64,000 nt of DNA from Isoetes taiwanensis (lineage: Eukaryota; Streptophyta; Lycopodiopsida; Isoetales; Isoetaceae). Within the stretch, counting starts at the first letter, position 1, and every line of letters begins with the position of its first letter. The position numbers and the translations under genes are program-made. Below the pieces are notes generated by a model. The model searched no databases. It saw only the letters and a program-made list of their open reading frames with translations, and was not told the origin of the DNA. Of the stretch, positions 1,332 to 62,162 are shown in pieces. The DNA lies in the NCBI GenBank assembly GCA_021234155.1, contig JAJEKV010000005.1, forward strand, positions 12,100,787 to 12,164,786, written 5' to 3'.

Positions 1332-1525
1332 CATCCAGGTAAATTCTGAGGTAAATCTGAGGCTTGGCCTACATTTGGTTTTGCCAACAAGTAACAGCCC
1401 AATACCCAGGTTTTCCTTTAGGAAATTTTATATGTTTCTCACTGACGCCTCTGCTATTTAAAGTTCTGTTTTAAATAAACATCTTTTAAATAAACATCTT
1501 TCAACACTTATGTTTGACATGTCTC

Positions 1526-1610
1526 TATTCTATTCTATTCTATTCTATTCTATTCTATTCTATTCTATTCTATTCTATTCTATTCTATTCTATTCTATTC
1601 TATTCTATTC
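1526..1610. repeat. (TATTC)n microsatellite, 17 units
   Basis: Seventeen perfect TATTC units. They are flanked by two diverged copies of the same roughly 70-85-bp sequence (about 1456-1527 and 1612-1697, both beginning ATTTAAAGTTCT and ending in a GTTTGACAYGTCTCTA-like word). The flanking duplication indicates that the tract grew at, or recombined within, a tandem duplication. Confidence 0.9.
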
Positions 1611-1917
1611 TATTTAAAGTTCTATTTTAAATAAACATTTTTTCATTCCGTTTCGAATGAAAATCTCTTTCAACGCTTATGTTTGACACGTCTCTAGCTG
1701 TTTGCTTCTCCCTCATAACTGGGAGCCTTATTGTGTCTTGAATCTATCCTCTGAAACTTCTTAATCGATGAAAATTCTGGGTCGTGGAGCTCTGCCCTTG
1801 ATAACTAAGCTATATCTCTTTGGAATATATCATTTAAGTTTTACGTTATCTTTAGGACATCTAGATATCAAGTAAGCGTAGGTATTTTAACAACGATCTT
1901 ATAGGTGTTTTAATCTT

Positions 1918-7645: not shown

Positions 7646-7797
7646 AAATTGTATTCCAGAATATACTTTTGCTATTCGAGGATAACAGAAGTGTATTTCG
7701 GAATACACTTTTGCTTTTCTTAAAAGTCAAAGTGTATTTCAGAATACACTTTTGGTTTTGCTCGAAATCTAAAGTGTATTCCAGAATACACTTTTGC
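7646..7797. repeat. Array of four palindromic repeats, about 41-bp period
   Basis: Four units at about 7646, 7688, 7728 and 7770 each contain a near-perfect palindrome, AAGTGTATTC facing GAATACACTT, followed by a short variable spacer. An open frame runs through the array (7513-7812) but is just the repeat read through. Related units occur at 8043-8083 and 23732-23838. Confidence 0.85.
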
Positions 7798-8042
7798 TGT
7801 ACAAGTTTTTGAGACTCAACAGTGATCTGGAATATATTTCATTTCTGGATAGCGACATGGGAAAACCTTCAAGTAGGTTTTTCAGTATCTTCAATGAATT
7901 TCAATGACCTTGCGATTTTATTTTGTTTATTTTATGGAGATACAGGATTATGGTTCTAAATAATAAAAGGGATTATTTTTGTTTCTTTTTTGGAGACTAG
8001 TAATACTGGATCATGGTTGTAGATGAAAGTGGGAAAGTTATT

Positions 8043-9471: not shown

Positions 9472-12034
9472 AAGTACATTTGCACACTTTTCTATGCAGT
9501 TCGATGTATATGTGTTTTTTTTTTAAAGAGAGAGCCAACAATTGATAGTGCTCAGAAGTCTAATTAGTAAACACACTCACAGTGCACTAACTGTCATATC
9601 ATCTGCCTCAGTCTTCAATTTGTTTGGCATAATTGATGGAACACATAGATATGGCACTATTTATTAATGCTGGTCTAACTTTAACAGCATGTAAGGCTGT
9701 TACCGTCATTAGATCAACGACTTCCTACCTTCTTTAATAATATAGGAAGACACGCTTCCTCAAAGAATAATTCCTCGAAAAGGAGGGTGGTTGTTTTATT
9801 CGCAGATGTTGTTTCCATTCTATCGCTGATCTAAAATTAAGTCTTTGTATGCTCACAGGCTCAAAATCCATCTCGAACAGATATACAACACAAAACTTTA
9901 TGAAAGGGGGCTAGAGCATTAGTGCGTCAATGTCCCGTTGTTCATGTGGTGTAATCTGTCATGCAGCTGGGATTAACATTTTCAGGCTTTGAATTAGGAC
10001 TTCCAGAAATCTTCCCTTTTGGAAGGAGCCTTGAATTGGAATGCTTGAACCCTCCTGGCATTCTTAACAGTGAACTAATTGCAGGTTTAATTCTATACCT
10101 GGAAATCTTCTCTTGCATTATGATATTGGTTCCTTTAGCAACAAGGTTGATATTTATGACATTTCTTAAAGTCCTACAACTTGTTTGTAAGATTCGTGTC
10201 CTAATATTCCTCCTTCCCTGCATATACTGCAAATACAAGTAGACAGAACTCTTGAAATAAAAATCTCAGATCTATTCGGATGAAATGTCTAATGTAATAT
10301 ATATGAGCTATTTCAACAAGTCATATAAGGATGCTTGGTGTTTGCGGGTCTCTATTCTCATGTTGGTGGCCACAAATGGAGAAATATATTTCAATACTGC
10401 AGCTCTTGTTTTATGTTTGCGCACCTTCCTGCAAAGCCGAGGCCCTGTTCATGATGAATATTGCGTATCTTATATCCTTGCATGAATGATAACCATAGAA
10501 TGATGGGACATTCATTCTAATGGAATATAGATCTTGATCATGCCACAAGTGTACATATTGTGGCAACTTTTCAATTTATTTGACATACAATATTGATTAG
10601 ATGTGTGTTGTTTGTGCAGTATTTATATCTATACAAGAAGAGTCACAGAGGTAGCATCTTGTCTCATAACTGTAGTTGGGCATATAATGTTTGCCATAGC
10701 ATTTCTAGGTACATTGTGGTCTTGGCTTCAAATCAACTTCATGTGAAGCTAGTATTGGCATTTTGCATGTGTCTAGGCTGAATGCCTGTTATCAAGGGTT
10801 CATGTCGTAAGCATGCCTGTGACATACATGCATGCCTTATAACAAACAACCCCATGCCTGAGATGTATGATCTGTATCCAAAATTTGGTGTTTGGAGGAT
10901 TTGCTTATGTCATTATTTGTTAGGCTTAGATTCTTTATTAGTTTATAACCTTTCTCTGATCATTGTAAAAGCAACTGTTCTAGTTATGTTATTATCTTAT
11001 AAAAGGGGTGCCATAACGAGATAAAGGCCCTTCAAAAGTGCTGTGAAAAATGTGAATACAAATCGTGGCATTGTGCATCTTTATCAGGCCTCCTTGGAAG
11101 CAAAAGCATGCTGACAAATATGTGTTATTTGTTTTAGATGTTATCAAGGGGTCCTATATAATATTCATGTAATCTTGCTAAGAACTAACTGGCCAAATAT
11201 GGTAGTTGGTATGCCCTATGCTATCTTTGTGATGAATTCTATCTCAAACATGGACCTATCTGGCCATGTCTTAAGTTATTGAAGATGGCCCAAGCTGTTA
11301 GGGACATATTCTGTTTGTTATCATTATTAATTCTTTTTAGATGGAAGTTAAAAGGACACAAATTACTGTAAAATTATATAATATATATTGTTTTTTCATT
11401 CGAATGTATCCTATAAGGAATTGCTCAAATTTAAGTAACGATTTGGATTGTCATGACTTTATGTGCCTGCATCAGTAATAGTACCATATAGAAATATATA
11501 AAATAGCATATATTCACAACCTAAGATGAGAAGGCAATGGCTAATGTAAAATAATGGTCATTTAGAAGCTATCACGCCTCTTATTCTGTCGCATTCTTTT
11601 CATATATTGCCTATATACTTGGAGTATATAACTGGCAATGCTATGGATGTCATCATTTTATTTTGAGAACGGTATTTGATAATAATCATGTTCTAAAATG
11701 TGTGTCCTTATGGGTCCTTATGATTACTTCAGATGTTTTAAAAATCCAAAAAACCTTGAGTTGTTGGATCCTAAATCATCTTCCAATAATCTAATGCACA
11801 TGGGTCTACACATCGTACACATGACAAAACTCGGATTAGAAAGAGCTCTTGCTTTAGCGAACTTAGAGACCACGTGCACACAATATTAGCTCGGAGACTA
11901 CATGCACACAATATATTCGAGTTGCAGGGGGGAATTTGGATTTGCAATGCTGTCCACATGTAATCAACAAACAGAAATCAACAATTTAATAGAAATAAGA
12001 ACAACAAGAGCACAAAACTGAAAACACCTTTCAA
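9472..12034. other. Intergenic, no gene supported
   Basis: The frame at 9961-10242 (plus, 93 codons) is the longest. It starts with a plausible mixed-composition segment but turns hydrophobic and AT-rich and matches nothing I know. I see no RNA gene or mobile-element terminus in this stretch. Confidence 0.5.
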
Positions 12035-13430
12035 TTCTTGCACTGCGACTCGCATGAAACCAACAAAGCGCCCGATAGATAGGCTTCTCATTCATCTCAG
12101 CAGATTTTCTACAATGGTGGACAGTGGATAGTCGCACACATGCGAACTACCCACGAAAAATAAAGGGAAAATCCAATTATATCATTTGGACCCCAAAACA
12201 AATACAATGCTAATAGATGAATGGCTGATGTACCTGCCGAAAGCTTATCACCGGGATTAAAAAACCCCGCCCTTTCGGGTTTTCGAGGAAAAACCCTAGT
12301 GATAAAGCCTTGCCGGCAAGGGCTTAGACAAACGTAAGGCATAGAATCGCTCCCAAAAACCCGCGCATGGAGAAGTCAAAATGGATGGCGCTCGCCAACC
12401 TGTACCTGCACATCACCAACAACAAACGAGAAACATACCAAAGAATAGCATCACCCAGTGGGCGGAAAAAAAGCATCACCCACCGGGTGGAAAAACATGA
12501 TAAACAGAACTTGTACAAAATATAATAAACAAAGAAGGGGGAGGGTGGGTTCAAAGAGAATAAGGTGCTTCTTTGAGAAGAGGAAGCCCGCGGGTAAACG
12601 TCGATGAAGAACTCGCAATAAGTAGCAAAACGCCCAACCTGATGAACGGCCTAAAAGCGATGCGATGCATGCATCGCGGCGCATACAATGCATGCATGCT
12701 CGTCTTGAGCAAGAATGCCGATTCGCTACGCGAATCGGCGAGCATATTCTTACCGCGATTCGCATGAAACCAACAAAAACGCCCGATACCAAAGGACTTC
12801 CTTAACAAACTAGGATCGGGGACGAAGGTCACGGGATGAAGGCTAAAGGCGGAAAAGGACAACCGGAAAGCAATGCCAAATTGGCCAAACCAGGCGAAGA
12901 AGCCCCTCCTGCACGAAACAAATCAAAGAGAATGAGATGCTGCGGGGAAGAGGAAGCCTTGGATGAAAACGTCGATGAAAAGAACTCACATGAATAAGTA
13001 GCAAATGCCCAACTTTGAAGAAACGGCCCAAAAGCGCGCGATGCATGCATGCGGCGCATGCAATGCATGCATGCTCGTCTTGAGCAAAGAATGGCGATTA
13101 AGCTCGCACGCGAATCGGCGGCATTCTTGCCTTTGCGACTTCGCATGAAACCAACAAAGCGCCCGAATACCAAAGGACTTCCTTAACAAACTAGGATCGA
13201 GGGCGAAGGTCACGCGGGATGAAGGCTAAAAGGCGGAAAGGACGACAGGAAAAAGCGCCAAATTGGCCAAACCGGGGAAAAGCCCTCCCACCTCAGGAAA
13301 CAATTCAAAGAGAATAAGGTACTGCTGAGAGAAGAGGAAGCGTCGATGAAACGTCACATGCATGCGACGCATGCAATGCATGCATGCTCGTCTTGAGCAA
13401 GAATGCCGATTCGCTACGCGAATCGACAAC
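12035..13430 (-). repeat. Array arm 1 (minus orientation)
   Basis: Order is terminal word, module B (about 12072-12545), core, A, core, A, core. Hairpin cores lie near 12711-12745, 13081-13120 and 13400-13430. It faces arm 2 across a spacer, forming a large imperfect palindrome. Confidence 0.8.
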
Positions 13431-14710
13431 ATTAGCAGGCACTACTCCAACCCACCCACATAAAAAACGTGGATTTGACTCTGCACATTATTTTCCCTTT
13501 GTTCTTAAAAGTTGCATGTCAAGCCCTGCTCCATCTTCAGCTTGTGGCTTGCCCAACACAACAAACCCAAGCAACCCAAGCACATACAACCAATCAATTC
13601 TCTCAGTAGAAGCTATTTCTTTTAAATCTTAACAGATCTTCAGAGCAGTATCTCAATCTGGCCGTAGCTCTACCAAAAGGTTGAATGGAGTCTGCGAATT
13701 TCATTGAACGCGCTCTTGTGGTTTGCTCCCCCTCCGAATCAAGACATTATGAAGTGGCCGACCGATAAATCCAAGATAAGAAGATCACAGATTTGAGTTG
13801 CCAGATGTCCCAAATCGAGAAAAAAAACAAACAAAAAAAACAAAACTTATGCTACCAAACTAGACCAAGGCAAGGGGAAAAAGAAATACACATGCTAAAT
13901 TTAACATTTTTTGAAAAAAAATCAACAAGGGCTCGACCCGTAAAAAACATTGGGCAACTTTGTTGAAGTAGCATGAAGCATTTTCTAGGCGAGTAGGTGG
14001 GGGATGAGTTTTCTTATAGGGTTTTGTAATTTTTCCCAAAATTAGGGCTATTTATGTAAGTTGATGATGTTTGGTTCCCTTTGTCTTCCTACATGGTCTT
14101 CCATGATGCTTGGAAAACCTACTTGTTCTAACCAAATTTAGAGGCTCCTCCTCCTCCTCCTCCATGCAACCTAACAAAGAAGGCTATCGTATTGGCCCCC
14201 TATGTCTGCTTAAGTCTCATTAAGGACATTTGGAGGGTCTTATGGGAGATGTTACCAATGTGGTATGATATCACACAATGGAGCTTATAAAGATAGGTGA
14301 TGCTCTTGAAACTTTAATTGCTATTAATTATCTACATATAACACAATGAAGCTTTGTACTTGTACATTGTGTTGGTCAATTACTAGTTCATGGACTTTAT
14401 TTGTCTACAAGTTTTAAATTTATCGCATTATAGCCATCGTTTGATCTATTTTTACAAAACACCAGTTAAATACACATATCATGGGTCCAAGCCACCTTCA
14501 CGAGAACATTCCCACTTGCACTGGCGTATAACATGACATGACACAAGAGCCAAAGCCCCACGATAGAAGGCAAGGCAATAATGGTCATAAGAAGGGCATT
14601 CACCGCATAACAATTGTACGTAATGCTATCATGAATAAAAGACAAAAAACAATTGTTGAATGTATTGCCAATCACGATAAATGACTTTCAACCAGATAAA
14701 ACAATTATCA
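13431..14710. other. Spacer between inverted arms
   Basis: Non-repetitive, AT-rich DNA unlike the arms, with a short CTC-repeat run near 14147-14162. No gene recognised. It forms the loop of the first inverted pair of arms. Confidence 0.6.
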
Positions 14711-17135
14711 ATGTCGTCGATTCGCGTAGCGAATCGGCATTCTTGCTCAAGACGAGCATGCATGCATTGCATGCGTCGCATGCATGCATCGCATGCATTT
14801 GGTAGATGTTCGTCCGGGTTGGGCGTTTGCTACTTATGCGGATTTCTTCCTCGGCGTTTCATCGGGCGCTTCCTCTTCTCTGTGATTACCTTTTCTCTTT
14901 GATTTGTTTCGGGGGGGGGCTTCTTCTTCCTGCTGGTTTTGATAATTGGCGTTGCTTTCCTGCTGTCCTTTTCGGCCTTTAGCCTTCATCCTGTGACCTT
15001 CATCCTCGATCCTAGTTTGTTAAGGAAGTCGCTTTGGTATTCGGGCGCTTTGTTGGTTTCATGCGAGTCGCGGTGCAAGAATGTCGCCGATTCGCGTGGC
15101 GAATCGGCATTCTGCTCAAAACGAGCATGCATGCATTGCATAAGGCTGCGCATGCATGCATCGCATGCATTTTGGGCGTTCTTCGGTTGGGCGTTTGCTA
15201 CTTATTGCGGAGTTCTTCATCGGCGTTTCATCGGTAGCTTCCTCTTCTCTGTGATACCTTTTTCTCTTTGAATTTGTTTCGAGGCGGGGGGGAGGCTTCT
15301 TCTGCTTGGTTTAGCAGGCAATTTAGGCGTTGCTTTCTGCTGTCTTTTTAGGCCTTTAGCCTTCATCCTGTGACCTTAAGTCCTCGATCCTAATTTGTTA
15401 AGGAAGTCCTTTGGTATTGGTGGCTTTGTTGGTTTCATGCGAATCGCTGATTAAGAATGTCGTCGATTGGCGTGGCGAATCCGGCATTCTTCTCAAGGCA
15501 ACATTTAATACGATACATCGTCGCATGCATCACCGCGGCTTTATGCATTTTAGGGCGTTAAGTCGGGGTTGGGCGTTTGCTACTTATTGCGGATTTCTTC
15601 CTCGGCGTTTCATCGGCGCTTCCTCTTCTCTTAGCGATTACCTTTTTTCTCTTTGAACCCACCCTCCCCCTTCTTTGTTTATTCTTTTTTTTACGCGAGT
15701 TCTTTTTATCATGTTTTCCACGGGTGGGTGATGCTTTTTCCACCCAATTGGGTGATGCTATTCTTTGGTATGTTTCGCTTTTGTTGTTGGTGATGTGCGG
15801 TGTGCGGGTTGGCGGCGCCATCCGCTTTGACTTCTCCATGCGCTGGTTTTTGGGAGCGATTCTATGCCTACGTTTGTCTAAGCCCCTTGCCGGCTAGGCT
15901 TTATCACTAGGTTTTTCCTCGAAAACCCGAAAGGGCGGGGTTTTTTAATCCCGGTGATAAGCTTTCGGCAGGTACATCATCCACTCATCTATTAGCATTG
16001 TATTTGTTTTGGGGTCCAAATGATATAATTGGATTTTCCCTTTATTTTTTGTGGATAGTTCGCATGTGTGCGGCTATCCACTGTCCACCATTGTAGAAAT
16101 CTGGCTTTGAGATGAATGAGAAGCCTATCTATCTATCAGGCGTTTTGTTGGTTTCATCACGAGTCCCATTCTAGAATCCCATCGATCAGGGACATCGGAT
16201 CGCCATTCTAGAATGGGGCGACATGCATGTTTTGCATGCATCTTGGTGGCCTTATGCCCATTATGGTTGGGAGTTAAGCTATTTTAGGCGCGATTACGCA
16301 TCAACATCTCATCGGTAGCTTCCTCTTCTCTCTGTGATACCTTATTCTCTTTGATTGTTTCCCGAGGCGGGGGAGGGCTTCTCCACACTTGGTTTGTGGT
16401 TTGGCATTTGTTTCTTTGTCCTTTTTCCAGGCCATTAGCCTTAGATCTGTGACCTTCCCCTCGATCCCTAGTTTGTAAGAAGTCCTTTTGGTATTCGGGC
16501 GGTTTTGTTGGTTTCATGCGAGTCCCATTCTAGAATCCCATCGATCCGAGGACATCGGATCGCCATTCTAGAATGGGACGAGTATCACATGCATCATGCG
16601 GGCGGCGCATGCCCATTATGGTTGGGAGTTCGCTATTTTTAGGCGCGATTACTGCATCAACATCTCATCGGCGCTTCCTCTTCTCTCTCGTGATTACCTT
16701 ATTCTCTTTGAACCCACCCTCCCCTTTCTTTGTTTTGTATTTTTATCGCGTGTACAGCGTAAGTAATCAACCCTCCACTCGGGAGGTTTGTTTTGTCTTG
16801 TTGTTTTATTGGTGATGTGCGGTGCAGGTTAGCGGCGACATCTGTTTCCGACTTTTTCCATTACGTGGGTTTTGGGAGGCGATTTTTATGCCTTTATGCG
16901 TTTGTCCAAGCCCCTTGCGAAGGCTTATCACTAGGGTTTTTCCTCGAAAACCCGAAGGGCGGGTTTTTAATCCCTATTGATAAGCTTTCTACAGTACACT
17001 AGCCTAATCTCTATTAGCATTGTATTTTGTTGGGGTCCAAATGATATAATTGGATTTTCCCTTTATTTTTGTGGGTAGTTATATGTGTGCGCTACCCACT
17101 ATCCTCGTGTAGAAAATCTGCTGAGATGAATGAGA
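14711..17135 (+). repeat. Array arms 2 and 3 (plus orientation)
   Basis: Standard cores lie at about 14711-14795, 15093-15170 and 15455-15545, followed by module B (about 15650-16137). Two variant cores then follow near 16154-16222 and 16528-16580, where CATTCTAGAAT-based arms replace the GCCGATTCGC arms. A second B copy ends at about 17135. Confidence 0.8.
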
Positions 17136-17166
17136 AGCATGAATGGGCTTCTCATTCATCTCGCAG
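17108..17166. repeat. Tail-to-tail junction palindrome
   Basis: GAGATGAATGAGAAGC faces GCTTCTCATTCATCTC across a seven-base centre near 17137-17143. This is where array orientation flips and two B modules meet end to end. Confidence 0.85.
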
Positions 17167-19250
17167 ATTTCTGAATGGATGGACCGATAGCCGCAATACG
17201 CTAATCCAACTACCCACCTAAAAATAAAGGGAAAATCCAATTATATCATTTGGACCCCAAAAAAAAATACAATGCTAATAGATGAGTGGTTGATGTACTG
17301 CCAAAAGCTTATCACCGGGATTAAAAAACCAGCCCTTCGGTTTTCGAGGAAAAACCCTAGTGATAAGCCTTCGACAAGGGGCTTAGACAAACGTGAAGGC
17401 ATAGAATCGCCCCCAAAACCCCGCATGGAGAAAGTCAAAACGGATGGCGCCCGCCAACCCCGCAACCCGCACATCACCAACACAACAAACGAGAAACATA
17501 CCAAAGAATAGCATCACCCAATGGGTGGAAAAAGCATCACCCACCGGGTGGAAAAAACATGATAAAATGTAACTTGTACAAAAATATAAAAAACAAAGAA
17601 GGGGGAGGGTGGGTTCAAAGAGAATAAGGTACCGAGAGAAGAGGAAGCGCCGGATGAAACGCCGATGAAGAACGGCGAATAAGTAGCAAACGCCCAACCC
17701 GAAGAACGCCCAAAACGCATGGCGATGCATGCATGCGACGCGATGTAATGTGCATGCATGCCGTCTTGATAAAGAATGGCGATTCGCTACGCCGAATCGA
17801 CGCATATTCTTGCAATCGCGACGCATGAAACCAACAAAGCCCCGGTCACCAAAGGACTTCCTTAACAAACTAGGATCGAGGGATCTAAGGTCACGGGATG
17901 AAGGCTAAAGGCCGGAAAGGACAGCAGGAAAAACAACGCCAAATTAGCCAAACCAGGCGGGGAAGAAGCCCTCCCCGCCTCGAAACAAATCAAAGAGAAT
18001 AAGGTGCTGCCGAGAGAAGAGGAAAGCCGGCGAAACGTCGGCGAAGAACTCTGCAATAAGTAGCAAACGCCCAACTTGACGAAACGACCCAAAACGCATG
18101 TAACGCATGCATGCATCGCGACGATGCAATGCATGCATGCTCGCCTTGAGCAAGAATGCCACTTTCGCCAATCCGCGAAATTCTTACCGGTGCGACTCGC
18201 ATGAAACCAACAAAGCGCCATAAATGAGGCTTCTCATTCATCTCGGCAGATTTGCTACAATGGTGGGCGATGGATAGTCACACACATGCGAACTATCCAC
18301 AAAAAATAAAGGGAAAATCAATTATATCATTTGGACCCCAAAACAAATACAATGCTAAAGGATGAGTGGCTGATGTACTGCCCGAAAGCTTATCACCGGG
18401 ATTAAAACCCGCCCTTTTCGGGTTTTTGGAAAAACCTAATGATAAGCCTTGACAAGGGCTTAGACAAGCGTAAAGGCATACAATCGCTCCAAAACCAGCC
18501 GCATGGAGAAGTCAAAGCGGATGGCGCCGCCACCGTACGCACATCACCAACAACAAACGAAACATACCAAAGAATAGCATCACCCTAGTGGGTGGAAAAA
18601 AGCATCACCCAAATTGGAAAAACATGATAAACGCGAGAACTGTATAAAATAGGAAGGGGGGAGGGTGGGTTCAAAGAAAATAGCGCTGGCGAGAGAAAGA
18701 GGAAAGCGCCGATGAACGTCGATGAAGAATTCCATAATAAGTAGCAAATGCCCAACGACGAATGGCCCAAAGCATCACGATGCATGCATCGGAAGCATGC
18801 AATGCATGCATGCTCGTCTGAAACAAGAATGCCCGATTAAGCTCGCCCGAATCGGCGACGATACTGCATTCGATGAAACCAACAAAGCGCCGAATACCAA
18901 AGGACTTCCTTAACAAACTAGGATCGAACGAAGGTCCGGGGATGAAGACTAAAGGCGGAAAAAGCAGCCCGAAAGAGCGCCAAATTGGCCAAACGAGGGA
19001 AAAGCCCCTCCCTGAAACAAATCAAAAAAAGAAATAGGTTACTTCTTGAGAGAAGAGGAAAGCGCCCGATGAAAGCGTCGATGAAAAATTCGCAATAAGT
19101 AGCAAATGCCCAACGGCGAATGGCCCAAAGCGCATGCGATGCATGCATCACGAGCATCGCGATACATGCATGCTGCGTCTGGAGTGGCACGCCACCGCTA
19201 CGCCGAATCGCATCGGACATTCTTTGCACCGCACTGCATGAAAACCAAAA
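17143..19250 (-). repeat. Array arms 4 and 5 (minus orientation)
   Basis: Two consecutive B-core-A-core sets, with B at about 17143-17612 and 18225-18665. Cores lie near 17775-17805, 18150-18180, 18830-18865 and 19185-19215. Some cores are damaged by short insertions or deletions. Confidence 0.8.
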
Positions 19251-19256
19251 GCGCCC

Positions 19257-20263
19257 CATGCATGCATTGCATCCGCATGCATGCATCGCATGCGTTATTC
19301 GGTTACCAAGTTGGCGTTTGCTACTTATTGCGAGTTCTTCATCGGCGTTTCATGGTAGCTTCCTCTTCTCAGCATGACTTATTCTCTTTGATTTGTTTCG
19401 TGGCGGGGGGGGGCTTCTTCCCCGCCGGGTTGGCCAATTTGGCGTTGCTTTCCCGCTGTCCTTTTTCAGCCTTTTGCCCTTCATCCCGCGATCTTCCCGC
19501 CGATCCTAGTTTGTTAAGGAAGTCCTTTGGTATTCAGCGCTTTGTTGGTTTCATCTGCGGTCGAGTGCAAGAATGTCGTCGATTCAGCGTGGCATTGGCA
19601 TTCTTGCTCAAAGGCAAGCATGCATGCATTGTATCGTCGCATGCATCACGATGCGCTTGGCCTGTTTCGGCAAGTTGGGCGCTTTTGCTACTTATTGCGA
19701 GTTCTTCATCGACGTTTCATCGGCGGCCTCTTCTCTCGCGAGCACCTTATTCTCTTTGAACCCACCCTTTCCCCCCATTCTTTGTTTACTTTATTTTGTA
19801 CAAGTTCTCGTTTTATCATGTTTTTGAAATTGGGTGATGCTTTTTCCACCCAATGGGTGATGCTATTCGCGGGTATGTTTCGCTTGTTGTTGGTGATGTG
19901 CGGTACAGGTTGGCGAAGCCATCCGCTTTTGACTTCTCCATCTTGCGGTTTTTGGGAGCAATTCTATGCCTTACGCTTGTCTAAGCCCCTGCGAGAGGAG
20001 AATATCACTAGGGTTTTCCTCGAAAACCGAAGGGCGGGTTTTTAATCCCGTGATAAGCTTTCGGCAGTACATCACCACTCATCTATTAGCATTGTATCTG
20101 TTTTTTGGGGTCCAAATGTTATAATTGGATTTTCCCTTTATTTTTCGTGGGTAGTTCGCATGTGTGCGGCTATCCACTGTCCACCATTGTAGAAATCTGC
20201 TGAGATGAATGAGAAGCCTATCTAGGGCGCTTTGTTGGTTTCATGCGAGTCGCAGTGCAAGAA
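19257..20263 (+). repeat. Array arm 6 (plus orientation)
   Basis: Orientation flips at an ATGCATGC-rich stretch near 19253-19290. The order is half core, A, core, B (about 19755-20237) and the terminal word, ending GCAGTGCAAGAA, the complement of the left end at 12035. Confidence 0.8.
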
Positions 20264-20771
20264 TGTAGAAGAATTGGACACAAGGTAAGCATTGAATGCT
20301 CATTGCTTATTCATATCAAGCATAATAATCTCCTAATCAATTCACATTTGACATTCCTTACCAAATAGATGCAACATCTAGTCCAAACAATGCGCAATAA
20401 AGATACATGTAGTTCTATATGTTTCAAACACATCTGCAACCACATCTTACACGACGATCAAGTCATCATCATCTGGTTGTGAAAGCGGTACCTCAATTAG
20501 ATCAAAAAACATATTCAAATTCTATACTAACCCAACATTGTTGTTATTATTCTTCAAAGTAGGTATTCAAAACCACACAAAATGCAAGTGGTCCAACACA
20601 TCTACTATAGAATGCACATGTGCCACGTATCAATATCTCCTTGCTTCATCAAACTAGCATAAGTTTATAGGTTAGTGTAGTATCGTGATAATCTCTAGTT
20701 CAAACGCTTGTCAAATACAAAAACCTAGTTGCAAAATAGTTGTTTCAGATTCTCTCATTGTTTAACCCTAC
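20264..20771. other. Intergenic, no gene seen
   Basis: Ordinary AT-rich DNA starts directly at the array edge, and no feature was identified. Confidence 0.5.
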
Positions 20772-20810
20772 CAAACAAACAAACAAACAAACAAACAAAC
20801 AAACAAACAA
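20772..20810. repeat. (CAAA)n microsatellite
   Basis: About ten tandem CAAA units. Confidence 0.9.
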
Positions 20811-20904
20811 TGCAAATGCCAAAAACGTGATAACGTAATCCAGCCCAACCGTTCCCCAAGCCTCCATTACTGCTAATTTTATATGTGCCATGGCTGAAAT
20901 GTAG

Positions 20905-23731: not shown

Positions 23732-23838
23732 AAAGGTGTATTCTCGAATACACTTTTGCTTTCTCATAATTCGAAGTGTATTCTGGATACACGTTTGTAT
23801 TTTAGAAAAATAAAAGTGTATTCCAGAATACACTTTTG
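23732..23838. repeat. Second array of the palindromic repeat, three units
   Basis: Units at about 23733, 23773 and 23813 share the AAGTGTATTC / GAATACACTT palindrome of the 7646-7797 array and have a period of about 40 bp. The middle unit is degraded. Confidence 0.85.
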
Positions 23839-24200
23839 TTTTTACATTATTGGTTTTATGTGTCATAGTGTTCATTTGTTTACTTGATTATTTTTTTGTT
23901 TTTTTATTCAGCCAATAGAACGTCAAAACATGTCAAATATGTTTGAGGGAACAACTACACGTGAAGACTTGGGGCATATACCCAGTTGCAACGTCTGACG
24001 AGCATATTGTTCAATACAGACCAAATTTTGAGGGTGCCAAATTGATGTACTGAAAAATTTCAAAGAAATAGTTATTATTTTTTCTTCTCTATTTTGATGT
24101 TTTTGATATCTCATTTTAAGAGATTATGTATTCACATCTACATTTTGTCATTGTTAAGGGCGCTTCTTTACAAAAAACAAATTGCCACTTAATGAGGAGC

Positions 24201-24218
24201 CAAAATGAGGGGAAAAAA
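24201..24218. repeat. LINE target site duplication, left
   Basis: CAAAATGAGGGGAAAAAA recurs at 27014-27033 with one extra G and an extra A. It brackets the LINE between them. Confidence 0.75.
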
Positions 24219-27013
24219 GTCTTTTTTAGAGCTGCAAAAATTCGGAGACAAACTTCTGCGATGGTGTCTCTCCAAGTTCAAGATGGGCCTCTCATCTCTG
24301 ATCCTCAGCAACTTAAGTTCTTTCTGCATGACCACTTTTCTTCCTTTTTTGCTTCTCGTCGTCTTCCCTTCCAATCAGATTTTCAGGAGGCATTACTGGC
24401 AAAGATGCATCCTATTATATCTGAGGAACAAAGAGCTACTCTAGAAACAGATATTACGGTGAATGATTTAGCAGATGCTACTTTCCTTTTGAAGAAAGGA
24501 AAGTGTCCTGGAATTGATGGTATTCCTATGGAGTTCTTTCAGGAGTTATGGGATTGGATTGGCGATGATGTGTACGATGCGTTTCAGGATTTCAAGAGGC
24601 AAAGGCGTCTAGATAAAATTCTTAACTCGGGCTGCATTTCTTTTATTCCCAAGTGTAAGGAACCTTCAACAATTTCGGACTGGCGCCCTATCACCTTACT
24701 ATCTTCTGTGTACAAGGTTTTTGCCAAAGCTTATGCACAAAAGCTCTGGGATATTCTCGTTGATTCCATATCCTCTACACAGTCAGGATTCTTGCCACGA
24801 CAATGCATATTAAACAATGTAGCTGCTGCCTATGGAGGTATTTACTGGGCTCGACTTCGGGGCCATGAAATTGTATATTTGAAGCTGGACCTTGCAAAAG
24901 CATATGACAGTGTTGACTAGGCCTTCTTAGAGAAATGTCTCTTACGCTTTGGTTTTGGTGCACAATTCATAGCTGATGTCATGAGGCTTCATTATTCTGC
25001 TCGCTCTTCTATTCTCTTCCAAGGGGAACCCTCAACATTCTTTTAGGTGGGTCATGGCATCCGTCAGGCCTACCCATTAGCTCCATTGTTATTTACAGTT
25101 GTGGCAGAGGTCCTTGCCCAGGTCTTCTCTCTTGCCGCACAGGAGGGAATCTTGCATGGACTTCCTATGAACAATGGGTCGCAGGAGATCTGTAATCAAT
25201 ATGCGGATGACACTTTCCTTTTTCTGAGGGCAGATGAGCAAAATTTGCAGAATGTCGTTTCCTTGTTGGATTCTTTTTCCCTAGCATCTGGTATTTTTGT
25301 GGGTTGGCAAAAGTGCACAGCACTATGGGCGTTGGACTCTCCAGTTCCACCATGTGTAACTGCTTATCCATGGAAGATCCTTCCCCATGGTAAAGCAACC
25401 AAACTTCTTGGTATCCCTGTAGGTGTTCATATCTCATCAGGAGATGCGTGGGAGGCAGTGATTAAGGGCTTGGAAAAGCACCTTTTCTGGTGGGTCCACA
25501 GCGAAGTTTTCCATGGCAGGACGAATCGTTGTGGCTAAGTCAGTTTTAAGCAGCACCCATGTGTATATGGCTTCGTTCATGTTGGCTCCACAGTCAAAGG
25601 TACAACTTCTCGTCAGGGTTGTCAGGAACTTCATCTAGGGGGAACAGAGGAGGGTGCTGCTGTCAAAGTCAGTTGAGAAAAGTGCATGTTGCCAAAGCAT
25701 TTTGGCGGCCTTGGAATGATCAATTTTCTTTTGCAGAGCAAGATAATGATTTCTAAGTTTATTTGGAGAATTTTGAATAATGTGGATGAGTCCCCGGGTT
25801 CCCGCCTTGTTTATCAGTCTTTGCAAATGTACATTTTTTTTGGGTCTCGATCTCTTAGGCCACTTTTCCCCTGGGCTCTGTTTTATCCACTGACCATATA
25901 CCCTAATGCGTCCCCATTTCTTAGAGGATTGCTAGTTGCATGGGAGACTGTATAATCTCTGTTTTTTTTTCACCATCTTGCGCACACTAGCACTACTGCA
26001 AGTTGCTGGTGGATTCCATTGGACGGTGGTCCTCTGGTAGCTTCAGTCCACCCATTGATGCAGCGTCGATGGAGAGCAGCAGGTGTGTATATGATATCTG
26101 ATTGGTATAATAATCCAAGGCAGTTGCTGACATGGGAAGAGTTCAGAGCTAAGTTCCTCCTTTTAAGGTGGGATCGAGCTATTTGGCAGAAGGTGCCTTC
26201 AATTCTTTCTTCAGTAGCACAAGTGGATAACCCCCAGCCTTGGGTAGTTCATGAGCGTGTCAAAGCAGATAAGTTGGTGAATTCCATGTACAAGGTCTTG
26301 CTTGCTGCGGACGTCTTGCCTCCTTCGTCCAAGTGGCCTTTGGTCATTCCTAGGAATCGGCAGATAGCAGTATAGAAATGGGTATGGGATAAACTACTCC
26401 ATCCCAAAATATCTGTTTTATGGTGGCAAGTCATTCATCGTTGTTTGCGCATTAATATTCTGGTGCACAGATTTCATCCAGAGGTATCTACACTTTGTCC
26501 CTTATGTGCACAGACGAGACAATTAAGCATTGCTTCTTCCTATGTAGACATGTCAGACATGCTTGGTTGTGGCTTCAAGGCCTCTTTCATTGCAATTTGA
26601 ATAGCCAGCAGGTGTTATTAGCAGTCTATCCAAGTAGTTGAGATAATTTGACAAAAGGGGCGTTTCATTTGGCTTCTGCATGGATCATTTGGTCCATTTG
26701 GAAAAGAAGGAATCTTCTCATATTCAAAGGTCTTGATTGTTCAGATGCACAGATCCTTCCTAATGCCCAACAACGAATTGTCAAAGCACTAGGTGCTCAT
26801 CAATTGTTAATGAGGTGAAGAGCCATATTTGGGAGCACTATCTTCAGATTCATACTTACTTATGAGTTTTTGCTTGCTCTTCATATTGTTTAGATGTTGT
26901 ATTTGAGTGGGGTGGTTTAGCTCTGGTGGACATTCTCTCCACTGAGTTATTAGTCCCCATTGTATTTTGTAACTTTCTCTGGATCATAAAGGCTCAAGTC
27001 CTTAAAAAAAGAA
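24219..27013 (+). mobile_element. 5'-truncated decayed LINE (L1-type)
   Basis: The endonuclease is missing. The element begins in the linker before the reverse transcriptase (FFRAAKIRRQTSAMVSLQ). RT blocks follow: KGKCPGIDGIP, ISDWRPITLLSSVYK, SGFLPRQCILNN, LKLDLAKAYDSVD, a degraded RQAYPLAP (normally RQGCPLAP) and the catalytic YADD in NQYADDTFLF. A C-terminal zf-RVT region (CPLCAQTR) lies near 26390-26600. Stops at 24918-24920 (Trp to TAG) and 25045-25047, plus frameshifts after 25540, kill it. It ends in a short A-run and is flanked by about 18-bp target duplications. Confidence 0.88.
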
Positions 27014-38410: not shown

Positions 38411-40285
38411 AATAGAATACAATACAATACAATTAGTGTCCTGGGTGCTACAGTGGTTCATATCACAAGCCCTTTGTCTTTGTGCACCTCACGGTGTCTA
38501 ATTACCATCTCATTGATTGCATCTGCTAAATCCGCTTTTGTCTCCTCTCTTACCATAAGGGTGTGTGTCGTTTTGTCCCCAACTTATAGAACTGTACATG
38601 TTTCTTATGTCTTCGTATGTTTTACATTCATTGAGCATGTGATTCTCGTCCTCTATTCTCCCGGTGTCACAAATTCTGTAGATTGGGTTCTCCCTTTCCA
38701 CTTTCCTCCATCTGTCCCTCTCAATTCTTAGGTCATGGCTGCCCATTCTGAATCTTGCTAAGGTGTCTCTTCTTGCCTTCCTTATTCGGCTATCCCTATA
38801 CGTTTTTTGTCCTATCAGTTAGTTCGGGTTGAATATTTCTCTCAGCCAGAGTGTTTTTTGGGCCGCTGTGCTTTTGTAGCCACGCTTGTGTCGCTCTGTC
38901 TACCCATTCTTCACTCCATTTCCCTTCATTTAATATGTCGTTCAGCTTCATTCCCATCTCTCTGGTCCAAACTGCTACTTCTCTGAACTATCCACCACCT
39001 GCAGTAATGTGGAGTTTGGCCGATTCCCAAATTGCAATTATAGATAGCTTCTCCGTATGTCCACCCATGTTATCTCTCAGCAAATATCTGATGGTCCTTT
39101 CCCAGGCTCTAATCTCCATTGGTCTCTGGCCTGTCTCGTATACCATGGCTGTCAAAGATGTGCTCATCCTCACTTTGAATTCCTGCCAGTGCCGTTGCCT
39201 CAAAATACCTTCCTGCTTCTCCCATTTCTTGTCTGACAGACCAGGTCCCCATGCCTCTGATCCGTACAACTGTGTTGACGCAACCACCATGCTGAACATG
39301 TAGCATTTGATCTCCCAATCAATTATTCTGCTCCTGTTGCAAAAGTTTTTCATTGTGTAATAGCTTCCTATGGCTGACTGAAACTTGGCATCCGCTCCTT
39401 TAGACCATTTGCCAATACCATGAGTGTCATATCCTAGGTATTTATATTCTGTAGCTTCCTCCAATTTTGCACCCATATACTTGAAGGATTTGTGTCTAGC
39501 CTTAGTTCCGAATGTGACTATCTTGGTCTTTGTTAGGTTCACTGACAGACCTGTCTTACTGCAGAAAGCTTATAGTAGCCCTAGTAACTTGTGCATACCC
39601 CTAGCCTTGGTAGCCATCATGCTCAAGTCATCTGCGTATAGCATTATGGGTACTTTGGTGTCTCCTAGAGTCGGAGCATCCATATCTTCATGTCCTTCTT
39701 CTATGAATTTCTATAAGGCGTCAATGTATATGTCAAATAGTGTTGGAGATAATGGACACCCTTATTTTACTTCTGTGTCACAATTTATTGTCTGTCCCTC
39801 TTGCTCCATTTTGGCGTACACTCTCTGGTATAATCGTGTAATATAGAATCTATCATGCCCTCTGGCACTCTTAGGTCTACCAGCCTCTGTAACAACTTTT
39901 CTCTTGGGACGGTATCAAATGCCTTTTTGAAATCTACAAAGCAGCATATCTTCTTACATTGTGATTTGGTTTGCTCTATTACTATTCGGAAGGTGACCAT
40001 GTGGTCTGCGGTCGAGTGTTCAGGCCGGAAACCCGCTTGCCCCTGTACTCTTAGATTTTCTGTTTCTGTCCAGTACTTCAATTTATTATCCAAGACCTTC
40101 CCAAACCACTTTGCGAAGATAGAGCTTACCATTATTGTTCTGTAGTTTCCTGGCTCATCCCTACTGCCTCCCTTGTGTAGGGGTATTATTTTGTCATATA
40201 CCCATCTGTCTGATATCCCTGTCTGGACTATGCTGTGGAATATTTCAGTGACTTGATCCCTTATTACTGTATCGGCGCATTTCAA
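38411..40285 (-). mobile_element. Decayed non-L1 LINE with pentanucleotide tail
   Basis: Reading on the minus strand, RT blocks are KIIPLHKGGSRDEPGNYRTI, GQAGFRPEHSTADH, FVDFKKAFDTVPREKLLQ, a GCPLSPTLFDIYIDAL box after an in-frame stop, and YADD at 39628-39639. Then follow FKYMGAKLEEATEYKYLGYD, LYGSEAWGP, ETGQRPMEIRAWER and a C-terminal RICDTGRIEDENH-LNEC zinc-like tail. It is broken by several stops and frameshifts and is truncated on the 5' side, with no endonuclease. The 3' end (38411-38433 on the plus strand) is an AATAC-type repeat rather than poly(A). A second copy of the same 3' end starts at 63722. Confidence 0.85.
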
Positions 40286-41159
40286 AAAGATTCAATACAG
40301 GTAGTGTTAGAGGTGGTGTGCCGAGTGTTGGGCATTATACATAAGCGTGCATAAGCGGTAGATGTAACGCTTGTGCAAAATAGGTAGATGTAATGGAATG
40401 TGTAGATGCGTGGCATCCTCATACCTTGTCTTTTTTATGCATGTGGTTTGGAGTCTTACCTATATTACATACGTTGAATATATTATCTTTTATACAAAAT
40501 CCATAGAATAAAAGCCAAGAGAATAGCTTGTTGTGAGGGTTTTTGGAATGATTTAGAAGGAGCAATTTTTGGGCAATTTTTTTGGTCAAACTTTGAAGCA
40601 TCATATTTTGGTGACTAGAGATCGTTTTAGATGATTTTTACTTTATTAGAAAAGATATCAATTAGGGTTTCGAATTGATTCTGATTAGGCTTTAATTCGT
40701 CCATATGCCGGAGTTATGATAGAAAGAGTGACGATGGGTCAAGATTGACTGCACTATATGTATCTTCTTGTCTAGTTTGATTCCTGAAGCTAGGAGCTAA
40801 AAGGAGGGGATACTTTGGAAGGAAAACAGATAGAAGATGCCATGGAACCATTCTTGAAGTAGTTTTCCTCAGATGAGTTATTAAGTCTTACACTAGGGAT
40901 TGCTCTTGATTTGCTTAAGTGATGTTCTTGGATTGTATTGAATTGTATCTGAAGACTTTCGGATTACGTTACAAATATTGATGGTGATTGATTGAAGAAT
41001 CAATGATCCATAAGAAAATGAATCATACTAGCTGTTAGTAAAAAGAATAGATGCATCTTGGCTAATCGATTTAATAAAGACAAATCACAAATCAAAGCTA
41101 AAGAAATCGTGTGACATAGTCATTATTGACAAATTAATATGAGATGTTGCATTCCTTAT
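40286..41159. other. Intergenic, no gene seen
   Basis: The first 40 bases repeat flank words AAAAAGATT and TAGAGGTGGTGTGCC found left of the LINE. The rest is AT-rich and featureless. Confidence 0.5.
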
Positions 41160-47508: not shown

Positions 47509-48324
47509 TTAACCTGCAGCTATTATCCATTTTATATCATATTCTATCTGCTTAATAACAGCCTCTGGATGAGTGATGTTACAGTTAAAAATGAAATTAT
47601 TCCTGCCCTTCCAGATCCTCCATAGAATGATGTAAATTCTCCAATCCCTAGGCTGATCTGGCATGAAGAGTTCAATGGAACTGATAGCATTGAGGTCAGT
47701 CCCAGTAAAAGCTGAGGCTAGTTCCAGAACCCACTCTGACCAAATGCATTCCCTAAATAAGTGGTCCACGTCCTCCCTATGGGCCAAACATCTGGGGCAC
47801 ACATCTGAATCTGCCATATGCAACTTAAATCTCTTCTGATTAGTGGCAAGAGCCTTGTGCCACAACTGCCACATAAAGGATTTGACCTTAGGTGGGATTG
47901 GGCTTGACCACATAAACTTAAGGTTCCTGATACATCTTTCTGCCCCAATCTGCCACTTGTTATGCATTGTAATACCCTGATCATTCATAAGGAATCTGTA
48001 AGCTGTTCTCACTGTAAATTCAGCTTTCCCATTATGGTTCCAGTTACTTTCCCCATTCGCCCACTTCCCTTGGACAAGCGTGGTACAAATGTTATTATAC
48101 AAGGCTTCACAATTATCATTCTCTCCATAAAGCTTCGATTCCCTGAAAGGGATAATCCCATTCTCATTAAACATATCTCTGATATAGTGGATGCCCTTAT
48201 TATCCCATAGTTTAGCTTGATCCGGGAAGTGGCAGGCCAGACAAAGAGAAGGATTATTCGTGAGTAGAGCTGGGTTCCAAAATATGGACTGATCTAGAGA
48301 TAACCCCTCTTTCCAAGTGAACAT
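47509..48324 (-). pseudogene. LINE ORF2 C-terminal zf-RVT region, frameshifted
   Basis: The frame contains a zf-RVT domain (FMWSSPIPPKVKSFMWQLWH, then CPRCLAHREDVDHLFREC with Cys/His spacing typical of this family) and LWRIWKGRNNFIFN. It is the natural end of ORF2, separated from it by a frameshift between about 48420 and 48325. After the WIIAAG end, a GTTAAG...TTTTCAG stretch precedes another frame (to 47153) of unknown nature within the element. Confidence 0.8.
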
Positions 48325-48418
48325 CCCCTTTACCAGATTCCAGGCCCTAATCCACTTTTTGATGAGGCCCGGTATGGAATTTGGGACAGTAAAGGGAAAA
48401 TAAATAGCATGGGGAAGA

Positions 48419-51139: not shown

Positions 51140-52598
51140 ACTTTATACTTACCATACTCAATTCGAGCTTGGATGGTTTGCTTCTTTTATCAACGATTTT
51201 CCAGCCTTTATCTTCAGTATCCAGAATCCCCTCAATTTTATCCAAAATGTCTGCCTCTCTTTTTTGAATCAATAGGTCGGGAATGTCCGGCACCGAAAAA
51301 ATGAAGTCCCCTGTGTCGATTCTCACTGACATGTTAATGTTTTTTTAAATTAGGACCATGTTATCTTTAATTTCCACACTAGGGGTGTCGATGTAATCCT
51401 TGTGATCATGAACCATATTAGACACTTTCATTTTGTCGCTTAGGATCTTCTGATCATTAAAATGGGCTGGCATAATAGAATCCTTATCCCCCACCTTCTC
51501 CTTCATCTTCTTTGGCATCCAAACCTGCTTGAGTTTCTGGGGGGGAGCTTCATTATTCTCCAACCCAGGGACCGACCATTTGGAGTAATTAACAGTGATT
51601 TCCAAATATTCATTAATTTTCACTCTTGTTTTAATCTTTTTTCTCCATTCAGAGTTGATTTTTTTGGAAATACACACGGAAGGGAAGTTAGTTTGAGGGA
51701 TATTGATATCTATAACTTCCCCCAAATTTTCAGAGAGGGTCAATAAATGAGTGCGGGTCCAAAAAGCTGGAGGGAGATTAGGAAAAGTGATCCAATTCTG
51801 ATCTCCCTTTCTGAACCCGGAATGAAATCTGGACTCCACTTCATGATGTAGAAAGGGGAGTTGGCAATGGAGTCCAACTTCCTTTTTAAGATATATTCAA
51901 CACAGACCTCATCCCTACACACAATCTGGAAGGTTTTACTATCTAGCTTGAGGATCGACATGATCGGAATGTGCTGGGATTTGGTTATCCAGGTCTTAAT
52001 GTCCCCCTGAGCAGGACAATTGCGCGGGAAATGAATCAAGAGACCTTTTTTAGAGAAGATGTTAGTAGCCGATGAATCAGGCACACCAAACATATCAATA
52101 AAATCACCATCTCTAACATTCTCCCTCCCGGGGTTAGTAGAAGTAGCCGGCTTTTCCCCTAAAAGAATATTTTTATATAATGGGGAAGAAATCACACCTT
52201 TTGCTTTGTCGTTCTTTCCTATTACCGGGATGGAGTTGATGATCTTATTTTCCCCAATCTTCGTTTTTGTCAGGTTCAGGTTGGAGAGCTTGATTTCTTC
52301 ACAATTTCCGCAATCACAGGAGTTGACCTCCATGGGGTTGAAGAACCCATTTGAATCCTTGATTTCACAGGTTTTCGCCTGCTTCTTTCTTCTGAGCTGA
52401 TAAACTTCCAGAGAGGTGGATATCCCTTCTATGGACTGGTCCATGGCAAGCCCCGATTTGAATGATTTTCGTTGCCTTTCTATAACATGATCCTCCGCTT
52501 CCCCATCTTTTGATTAACCTGATACTCGCCTTGGAGCCTTCTTTCAACCCATCCCAAACAATTATAAGGTTCTTTACCTTTGATAACAGTTCATCCAT
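51129..52598 (-). pseudogene. LINE ORF1 (RNA-binding, DUF4283-like), frameshifted
   Basis: ORF1 is split over four minus-strand frames: 52598-52365, 52444-51740, 51839-51345 and 51332-51129. Breaks lie near 52450, 51830 and 51340. Sequence such as NIFSKKGLLIHFPRNCPAQG, then YILKRKLDSIANSPFYIMKW, is typical of the DUF4283-type ORF1 of plant L1 elements. The last piece overlaps the ORF2 start. ORF1 proteins bind the element RNA. Confidence 0.75.
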
Positions 52599-58857: not shown

Positions 58858-58858
58858 G
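58829..58858 (+). promoter_or_regulatory. Probable 3' splice site in the OPT 5' leader
   Basis: A pyrimidine-rich stretch ending TTTGTAAATCAG directly precedes GGAAGC and, 22 bases later, the OPT start codon. This suggests the mRNA has an intron in its 5' UTR. The donor was not identified. Confidence 0.45.
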
Positions 58859-58880
58859 GGAAGCATTGCTGGCCAATGCA

Positions 58881-61800: not shown

Positions 61801-62162
61801 GGATATGTGCAAAAACGTTTCCAAAAGTAAAATGGATAGTCCTGATAAACATCCCTGTGATGCTTGGTGCAATTGCATCGATGCCACCTGCTACACCTGT
61901 TAATGTGGGCTCCTGGCTTATTGTAGGCACGGTGTTCAACTTCTTCCTGTACAGGTATAGAAAGCGATGGTGGCAACGCTATAACTATGTGCTCTCTGCT
62001 GCTTTTGATGCAGGCACGGCCTTCATGGCTATATTTTTGTACTTCTGTTTCGACCTAGAGAAGAGAAATATTAAGTGGTGGGGAACGCAGGTTGATCATT
62101 GCCCTCTTGCTGCTTGTCCTACAGCTCCAGGCATTGTAGTGAAGGGGTGCCCTGTGTTTTAG
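58881..62162 (+). CDS. Oligopeptide transporter (OPT family, PT clade), six exons
   Basis: Exons are 58881-59486, 59726-59823, 60276-60842, 60908-61160, 61229-61411 and 61548-62162. All introns are GT-AG and phases agree, giving 2,322 coding bases (773 residues), normal for plant OPTs. OPT proteins are multi-spanning proton-coupled importers of small peptides or metal chelates, usually at the plasma membrane. Visible hallmarks are [10 protein letters not shown], the NPG motif at residues 146-148 ([15 protein letters not shown]), [20 protein letters not shown], the KIPPR motif at 559-563 ([12 protein letters not shown]), ENICNTD and the C-terminal [15 protein letters not shown] ending GCPVF. 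The acidic N-terminus (about 60 residues) is variable in the family. The ATG at 58881 was chosen because an in-frame TTG 15 bases upstream is not a normal plant start. The substrate cannot be told from sequence. Confidence 0.95.

What the first reader, a model, noticed from the sequence alone, without database searches (positions are those of the whole stretch)
12035..20263. 8.2-kb composite array of tandem and inverted hairpin modules
Six B modules and about a dozen hairpin cores are arranged in runs that change orientation three times, with the whole block closed by inverted ends of at least 60 bp. It is neither a simple satellite nor a recognised transposon. Two alternative links (short A, long B) join identical cores, so the repeat grows by exchanging links. 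Cores carry alternating purine-pyrimidine CATGCATGC runs, which are also RY-type motifs bound by plant B3 factors. It could be a foldback-type element, an amplified replication intermediate, or a structural locus.
Basis: partly seen in the sequence, partly recalled or inferred. Interest (0 to 1): 0.78.

Follow-up and report, generated by a model that had tools for sequence, protein, structure and literature searches.

The report
Paired tandem rolling-circle transposon insertions
The strange 8-kb block is not one folded element but two neighbouring insertions of an abundant transposon family, built of head-to-tail copies with hairpin ends, that looks like the rolling-circle "Helentron" type best known from animals, here in what is probably a quillwort genome.

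Summary
The reading as one closed block is wrong. It is two separate insertions, E1 (+, 12034-13433) and E2 (-, 14710-20264), in ordinary repeated host DNA: related empty sites join the flanks of E1 in 4 loci and of E2 in 5. Modules are dispersed genome-wide: 2,637 exact copies of one 3'-end 23-mer and 589 of the window-type 20-mer, 0 in reversed controls. Solo copies have HINE/Helentron anatomy: palindromic repeat at the 5' end and again ~30 nt before the 3' end, GATA microsatellite, 3' hairpin, ATT target. The arrays are best read as head-to-tail multimers of a non-autonomous rolling-circle transposon; E2 also carries an inverted piece. Helentron genes (Rep, helicase, endonuclease) exist in this genome, but none of 14 loci examined shows these ends, so the enzyme partner is unproven. 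The genome is probably the lycophyte Isoetes taiwanensis (inferred from assembly size).

The parts
12034..13433 (+). E1: first insertion, units B-A-A', 5' end ATTCTTGCACTGCG..., 3' end ...GCGAATCGACAACATT
   Evidence: four related empty sites join 12033 to 13434
12034..12747 (+). B unit 1 of E1
12748..13125 (+). A unit 1 of E1
13126..13433 (+). A unit 2 of E1 (shortened; BLAST rows 13135-13355 and 13357-13425), ends in 3' hairpin 13408-13425 and terminal ATT
12720..12737 (+).
13434..14709 (.). host DNA between the two insertions; itself repeated in the genome
14710..20264 (-). E2: second insertion, 5' end at 20264, 3' end at 14710
   Evidence: five related empty sites join 14709 to 20265
19576..20264 (-). 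B unit at the 5' end of E2
19257..19554 (-). A unit of E2, 3' part missing at the inversion joint
17143..19256 (+). inverted piece inside E2: B (17143-17807), A (17817-18158), B (18191-18858), A (18868-19184), start of a further unit to 19256
17128..17157 (.). head-to-head joint GAATGAGAAGC-ATGAATGG-GCTTCTCATTC; one of 20 places found with this joint pattern, this spacer only here
16539..17138 (-). B unit of the TTCTAGAAT subfamily, first ~52 nt missing
16175..16536 (-). A unit of the TTCTAGAAT subfamily
15460..16177 (-). B unit
15080..15447 (-). A unit
14710..15074 (-). A unit with the 3' end of E2 (hairpin 14718-14735, terminal ATT on the minus strand)

Best explanation
The block is two independent insertions, in opposite orientation and 1.28 kb apart, of one family of non-autonomous rolling-circle transposons with Helitron2/Helentron-type (HINE) ends. 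Inferred: a Rep-helicase supplied by another element nicks the TT at the 5' end, peels off one strand, normally stops at the 3' hairpin, and sometimes runs on or uses a circle, giving B-A, B-A-A or B-A-B-A-A multimers that insert at ATT without a target duplication. E2 later, or during transposition, acquired an inverted B-A-B-A piece by joining two units head to head with loss of both 5' tips.
For: Empty sites: E1 in L029, L030, L031, L037 (all 4 places whose match starts at the E1 edge) and E2 in L032-L036 (5 of 20 places that reach the E2 edge); ATT at 2 of 4 (one AAT, one diverged) and AAT, the same word on the other strand, at 4 of 5. L013, inside a reading frame I take as Copia-like, has relatives aligned over the whole 210-nt flank join; the three read show ATC, ATT, ATT. 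Nine solo loci chosen: 9 of 9 start ATTCTAGAATGGG; 8 of 9 show the 3' hairpin and 6 of 9 end exactly GATGCGATT. The 5' and 3' repeats differ together between the two subfamilies: TTCTAGAAT at both ends, or TTCTTGC at 5' with GCAAGAA at 3'. 2,637 and 589 exact 3' ends, controls 0. Neighbouring 3' ends within 1.5 kb lie on the same strand in 33 of 34 and 26 of 26 pairs (first 100 places of each list). Known HINE traits match: palindromic subterminal repeats, 3' palindrome, four-base microsatellite (passages). The genome encodes Helentron-type proteins.
Against: No Rep-coding element with these ends was found: none in the stretches read at L022-L026 nor in ten 3' regions, one of which extends L023, 14 loci in all. 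Searches for the same exact ends on other interiors gave family copies or stretches without a Helentron match. A 3-bp target duplication (ATT) cannot be told from no duplication. Among nine solo copies L014 has lost its 3' hairpin and L016 and L019 vary at the last bases. Canonical Helitron ends (TC...CTRR) are absent. The 20 head-to-head joints are not explained by simple rolling-circle multimers.
Confidence: 0.84

Rival explanations
1. A single foldback or Mutator-like element with very long internally repeated terminal inverted repeats, 12034-20264, with 13434-14709 as its centre.
For: The outer ends are inverted over about 1 kb; plant MULEs with multiple tandem TIRs are known (PMC3310237, outline and abstract).
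Against: Related sites lacking E1 but holding the 'centre', and others lacking E2, show two events. Eight of the nine solo loci show no long inverted arms at the element; L015 has an inverted pair 5 kb apart, which I read as a second copy. Solo ends are asymmetric. No 8-9 bp duplication at the sites read.
Confidence: 0.03
2. A cut-and-paste DNA transposon with a 3-bp ATT target duplication whose non-autonomous copies multiplied, tandem joints arising by insertion of one copy into the flanking ATT of another.
For: One ATT before and two after insertion fits a 3-bp duplication as well as a no-duplication reading.
Against: The ends are not terminal inverted repeats: the 3' copy of the repeat is followed by ~30 nt with a hairpin. 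PIF/Harbinger duplications are TWA (recalled). Joints are regularly spaced and same-strand.
Confidence: 0.08
3. Nested and adjacent insertions only: every unit is a separate insertion that targets ATT or the GATA run in earlier copies, with no rolling-circle multimers.
For: ATT stands at clean joints; head-to-head joints hold the CTATCTAT run in 15 of 20 places; microsatellite-targeted non-nested TE arrays exist in plants (PMC5907723, abstract).
Against: Orientation is nearly always the same within a cluster (33 of 34; 26 of 26), and B-A in that order is the form of 6 of 9 solo copies at unrelated sites.
Confidence: 0.12
4. Assembly artefact.
For: The presumed source assembly used Nanopore reads and optical maps (PMC8566536, passages).
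Against: No N in the window; the ends of both insertions match clean empty sites and unit joints recur at other loci.
Confidence: 0.03

Closest known systems
HINE / DINE-1 (Helentron-associated interspersed elements), e.g. HINE-Mo of a mite (PMC4067079, passages)
   Same: Palindromic subterminal repeats near both ends, 3' palindrome, TT at the ends, no coding capacity, high copy number, tandem repeats in some copies.
   Different: Probably a plant host; fixed ATT rather than T runs; two alternating unit types, each with its own 5' and 3' end; autonomous partner not found.
Cg_HINE of the Pacific oyster (PMC7492417, passages)
   Same: 5' repeat, microsatellite mostly of four-base units, 3' repeat and palindrome, tandem repeats, dispersed.
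   Different: In the oyster the tandem monomers lie between the two end modules; here each repeated unit carries the end modules itself.
FoHeli / Helitron2 of Fusarium oxysporum (PMC5148889, passages and one section)
   Same: Asymmetric inverted repeats with hairpins, FoHeli1/2 insert between TNAT and T, copies with multiple 5' ends, evidence for joined ends.
   Different: Different end sequences; the FoHelis described there include copies that code for Rep-helicase.
MULEs with multiple tandem TIRs (PMC3310237, outline and abstract)
   Same: Tandemly repeated end modules in plant elements.
   Different: MULEs have true terminal inverted repeats and longer target duplications (recalled); the solo copies read here have neither.
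SaTar microsatellite-targeted MULE arrays in guayule and rice (PMC5907723, abstract)
   Same: Modular arrays and microsatellites next to joints.
   Different: Arrays of unrelated MULEs; here one family with hairpin 3' ends.

Membership tests
HINE / Helentron (non-autonomous) | subterminal inverted repeats, palindromic, at the 5' end and tens of nt before the 3' end | tested here: met
   CCCATTCTAGAATGGG-type repeat at the 5' end and ~30 nt before the 3' end; window type TTCTTGC/GCAAGAA, itself not palindromic
HINE / Helentron (non-autonomous) | short palindrome near the 3' end | tested here: met
   CGATCCGATGTCTCGGATCG and CGATTCGCTACGCGAATCG; folds; seen in 8 of 9 solo copies and
HINE / Helentron (non-autonomous) | microsatellite, mostly of four-base units, after the 5' repeat (trait of described families, not of all) | tested here: met
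   GATAGATAGATAG-type run in B units; trait as in PMC7492417 passages
HINE / Helentron (non-autonomous) | insertion at TT without target duplication | tested here: inconclusive
   TT at both termini and one ATT or variant in most empty sites; a 3-bp duplication reading is not excluded, and no T runs are seen
HINE / Helentron (non-autonomous) | autonomous Rep-helicase-endonuclease partner with the same ends in the genome | tested here: inconclusive
   Helentron-type genes present, but 0 of 14 loci examined show the ends; not exhaustive
Canonical Helitron (Helitron1) | 5' TC and 3' CTRR, insertion between A and T | tested here: not met
   3' ends are GATGCGATT or GACATT/AACATT, no CTRR
Foldback / Mutator-like element | long terminal inverted repeats with 8-11 bp target duplication (recalled) | tested here: not met
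   asymmetric solo ends, no inverted arms at the element; empty sites show at most 3 bp
PIF/Harbinger | TIRs and TWA target duplication (recalled) | tested here: not met
   asymmetric ends, ATT target
Satellite DNA | long tandem arrays at few loci | tested here: not met
   dispersed; 65 of 66 and 74 of 74 clusters in the two 100-place lists hold one or two exact 3' ends

The most novel reading that the evidence does not exclude
A land plant (probably the quillwort Isoetes taiwanensis) carries both coding Helentrons with Rep, helicase and endonuclease and a HINE-like family with thousands of 3' ends. [quoted passage not shown] Its multimers, including palindromic head-to-head forms, move or spread as units, so rolling-circle transposition is a continuing source of palindromes and satellite-like arrays in this lineage.
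Probability: 0.35. Interest if true: 0.62.

Novelty: new variant of a known kind. Interest (0 to 1): 0.46.

Why it matters
Helentrons and HINEs are described mainly from animals, with a limited range elsewhere (PMC4067079, passages). A HINE-like family with thousands of 3' ends beside coding Helentrons in a plant nuclear genome would widen that range. It also gives a clean system, with several empty sites and two unit types, to test how rolling-circle elements make head-to-tail multimers and palindromes. For the finding itself it removes a false 'single palindromic locus'.

Tried and rejected
Foldback/MULE reading of the block: rejected by empty sites and asymmetric solo ends. Canonical Helitron: rejected, no CTRR.

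Search for the autonomous partner. DUF6570 gave 24 matches; five of these loci were read. L025/L026 with L027/L028 are a Helentron with its own different ends; L022-L024 show no family end in the stretch read, but their own ends were not all reached. Ten 3' regions chosen (nine new loci, plus L047 which extends L023) had no family 3' end. Motif scans there and gave a few weak matches with 3-4 edits (in L024, L025, L026, L047, L050, L054) and one with a single mismatch to a 12-mer (L048); BLAST against the element did not support any and I discounted them. Patterns asking for the family's exact ends on other interiors returned 188 places (3' end, 100 listed), 11 and 2. Four of the 188 and two of the 11 were read, and both; none gave a Helentron protein match. 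The remaining listed places I judged from the printed letters alone, most as family copies with small indels; 88 of the 188 were not listed. Each pattern accepts only about a third of unrelated interiors, so a partner is not excluded. L021 has a family copy beside a decayed Helentron fragment; read as neighbourhood, not partnership.

A lenient motif harvest of 3' ends (378 rows, much of it noise, output cut) was used only for clear examples; no formal covariation count was made. An earlier count said endonuclease in 8 of 10 loci; that was wrong. bears out 5 of 10 (L048, L049, L050, L051, L054); in L052, L053 and L055 the match stops at or just inside the start of that domain, and L047 and L056 have none. 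One search lists each palindromic place once per strand, so its 40 rows are 20 places. Not tested: B3/RY binding, Z-DNA, small RNAs, methylation. Species by size: one search returned nothing, led to PMC8566536.

Full report
Observation. Self-BLAST places it at 12034-20264 with inverted outer ends (83.6% over 1,066 columns) and alternating runs. A unit map against the canonical modules gives 6 B and 8 A units. Units differ a lot: B pairs are 70.6-88.6% identical and A pairs 58.3-84.5%, so I infer that the array did not arise by recent amplification in place. Control windows and shuffles show nothing comparable.

Genome context. The window is G000:C1056:12100787-12164786 of a 1,658,258,908-base assembly in 1,110 contigs. 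Isoetes taiwanensis is published with 1,658.30 Mb, 204 scaffolds and 909 unplaced contigs, i.e. 1,113 (PMC8566536, passages). I infer that this is the source; the tools name no organism. The word Helitron has 0 occurrences in that paper's main text.

The modules are a dispersed family. A 341-nt query had 3,300 first-look candidates, of which 40 were scored, giving 43 match rows. The exact 23-mer CATTCTAGAATGGCGATCCGATG occurs 2,637 times and the window-type GAGCAAGAATGCCGATTCGC 589 times, both with 0 in the reversed control. These count exact 3' ends only, and many elements carry two, so they are not element counts.

Anatomy of solo copies. Nine of the places were read with flanks (L013-L021). 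All nine 5' ends read ATTCTAGAATGGGACTCGC or one base off (L019), with unrelated DNA before them. Eight of nine show the 3' hairpin; six end exactly ...GATGCGATT, L016 and L019 vary at the last bases, and L014 has lost the hairpin. Six of nine are B then A (L013, L015, L017, L019, L020, L021); L016 is longer, L014 and L018 are shorter. In L013 the first 3' end, CCCATTCTAGAATGGCGATCCGATGTCTCGGATCGATGCG, runs straight into the next 5' end through one ATT. The 5' repeat recurs about 30 nt before the 3' end, followed by the hairpin. B units carry a GATAGATAG-type run after the 5' repeat. This is the published layout of HINEs: palindromic subterminal repeats, a 3' palindrome, and in oyster HINEs a microsatellite mostly of four-base units (PMC4067079 and PMC7492417, passages). 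The window's subfamily has TTCTTGC at the 5' end and GCAAGAA before its 3' hairpin GATTCGCTACGCGAATCG. Both copies of the repeat differ together between subfamilies, which argues that the two ends work as a pair (inference).

Two insertions, not one. The 1,276 bp between the first + and first - runs match other genome places (41 rows including the window itself, 40 of 244 candidates scored). Nine were read past the point where the array begins: all 4 whose match starts at the E1 edge, and 5 of the 20 whose match reaches the E2 edge. Four (L029, L030, L031, L037) continue directly from about 13434 into the sequence left of 12034, so they lack E1. Five (L032-L036) continue from about 14709 into the sequence right of 20264, so they lack E2. 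At the E1 site the empty copies read ATT in two, AAT in one and are diverged in one; at the E2 site AAT (ATT on the other strand) in four and AAG in one. A third case, L013, inside a frame that I read as Copia-like integrase (no domain search was run on it), was tested by joining its flanks through one ATT: 40 rows, two of which are the filled locus itself; the three relatives read show ATC, ATT and ATT. So these insertions most likely sit at pre-existing ATT. Whether the second ATT belongs to the element (no duplication) or is a 3-bp duplication cannot be decided from the sequence.

Multimers. In the first 100 listed places of each subfamily, neighbouring 3' ends within 1.5 kb are on the same strand in 33 of 34 and 26 of 26 pairs; 32 of 33 same-strand spacings are 352-380 nt and 23 of 26 are 365-384 nt. 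E1 is B-A-A'. E2, read from its 5' end at 20264, is B-A, then an inverted B-A-B-A piece, then B-A-B-A-A to its 3' end at 14710. Read-through of a termination signal is the published explanation of tandem Helitrons (PMC4067079, passage), FoHeli1 molecules with joined ends have been amplified (PMC5148889, passages), and copies with multiple 5' ends are described there (section read). I take rolling-circle multimerisation as most likely here; it is inferred.

The inverted piece. One boundary is a head-to-head joint of two B units that have lost their 5' tips. A pattern for this joint gives 40 rows, i.e. 20 places, with 20 different spacers; the window's spacer is found only in the window. The pattern itself limits the joint to this position and to a gap of 1-30 nt, so other head-to-head joints were not counted. 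Four of the 20 were mapped (the window's and L057-L059), and all join B at about position 42-46 to B at about 53; L006 shows a similar joint. L060 shows that some B units start with a different leader, AGACTTAGACTT; 8 of the 20 spacers carry AGACTT and 15 the CTATCTAT run. The recurrence may mean repeated formation at the GATA run, or spread of a few palindromic ancestors. I could not decide, so this stays open.

Who moves it. The genome has many Helitron_like_N matches (1,813 candidates, 150 scored) and 24 DUF6570 matches. L025 encodes DUF6570, the Rep domain and, in a second frame, an endonuclease match with a weak Pif1 2B match; L026, its near-identical relative, has a PIF1 helicase match. 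Rep, helicase and endonuclease together are what the papers read call a Helentron. A Rep search from L023 gave 96 match rows (85 of 533 candidates scored). Of ten 3' regions read, the endonuclease part is matched in five (L048-L051, L054) and the family's 3' end in none. The L025/L026 family has its own ends: TTTTTGGATTGCCCCTGTTAAGGGGGCAATTC and a 3' hairpin before GGGTTTGA. So the genome has the right class of enzyme, but the specific partner is not identified; it may be extinct, divergent or unread.

Novelty. [quoted passage not shown] My literature searches (listings of 20 of 6,423, 15 of 42, 12 of 3,142, 12 of 25 and 15 of 20 papers) listed no paper with HINEs or Helentrons of a lycophyte in its title; subscription papers are not held. 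The kind of element is known; the host, end sequences, B/A unit structure and palindromic forms I know from no paper seen here. I therefore rate it a new variant of a known kind.

Noticed in passing
window 7646-7798 and 23732-23846: Two separate tandem arrays of a ~40-bp palindromic unit (AAAGTGTATTCCAGAATACACTTTTG...), 16 kb apart.
   Followed up: no
window 47509-51142 (-): Non-LTR retrotransposon: RVT_1 and endonuclease in a 907-aa frame, zf-RVT next to it.
   Followed up: partly
window 24120-25538 (+) and 39785-40291 (-): Further reverse-transcriptase fragments (RVT_1).
   Followed up: partly
window 58854-62162 (+): Parts of an OPT oligopeptide transporter gene (two frames matched).
   Followed up: partly
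window 1524-1614: Perfect TCTAT x18 microsatellite.
   Followed up: no
L025 with L027; L026 with L028: Two near-identical Helentron copies with DUF6570, Rep, helicase and endonuclease matches between them and defined ends.
   Followed up: partly
L021:6421-7911: Family copy next to a decayed Helentron N-terminal fragment related to L023.
   Followed up: partly
L060:55-90: B unit with alternative 5' leader AGACTTAGACTT in place of the GAAACC...GATA stretch.
   Followed up: partly
window 11736-12033, 13434-14709, 20265-20842: The host DNA around both insertions is itself a dispersed repeat of unknown kind.
   Followed up: no
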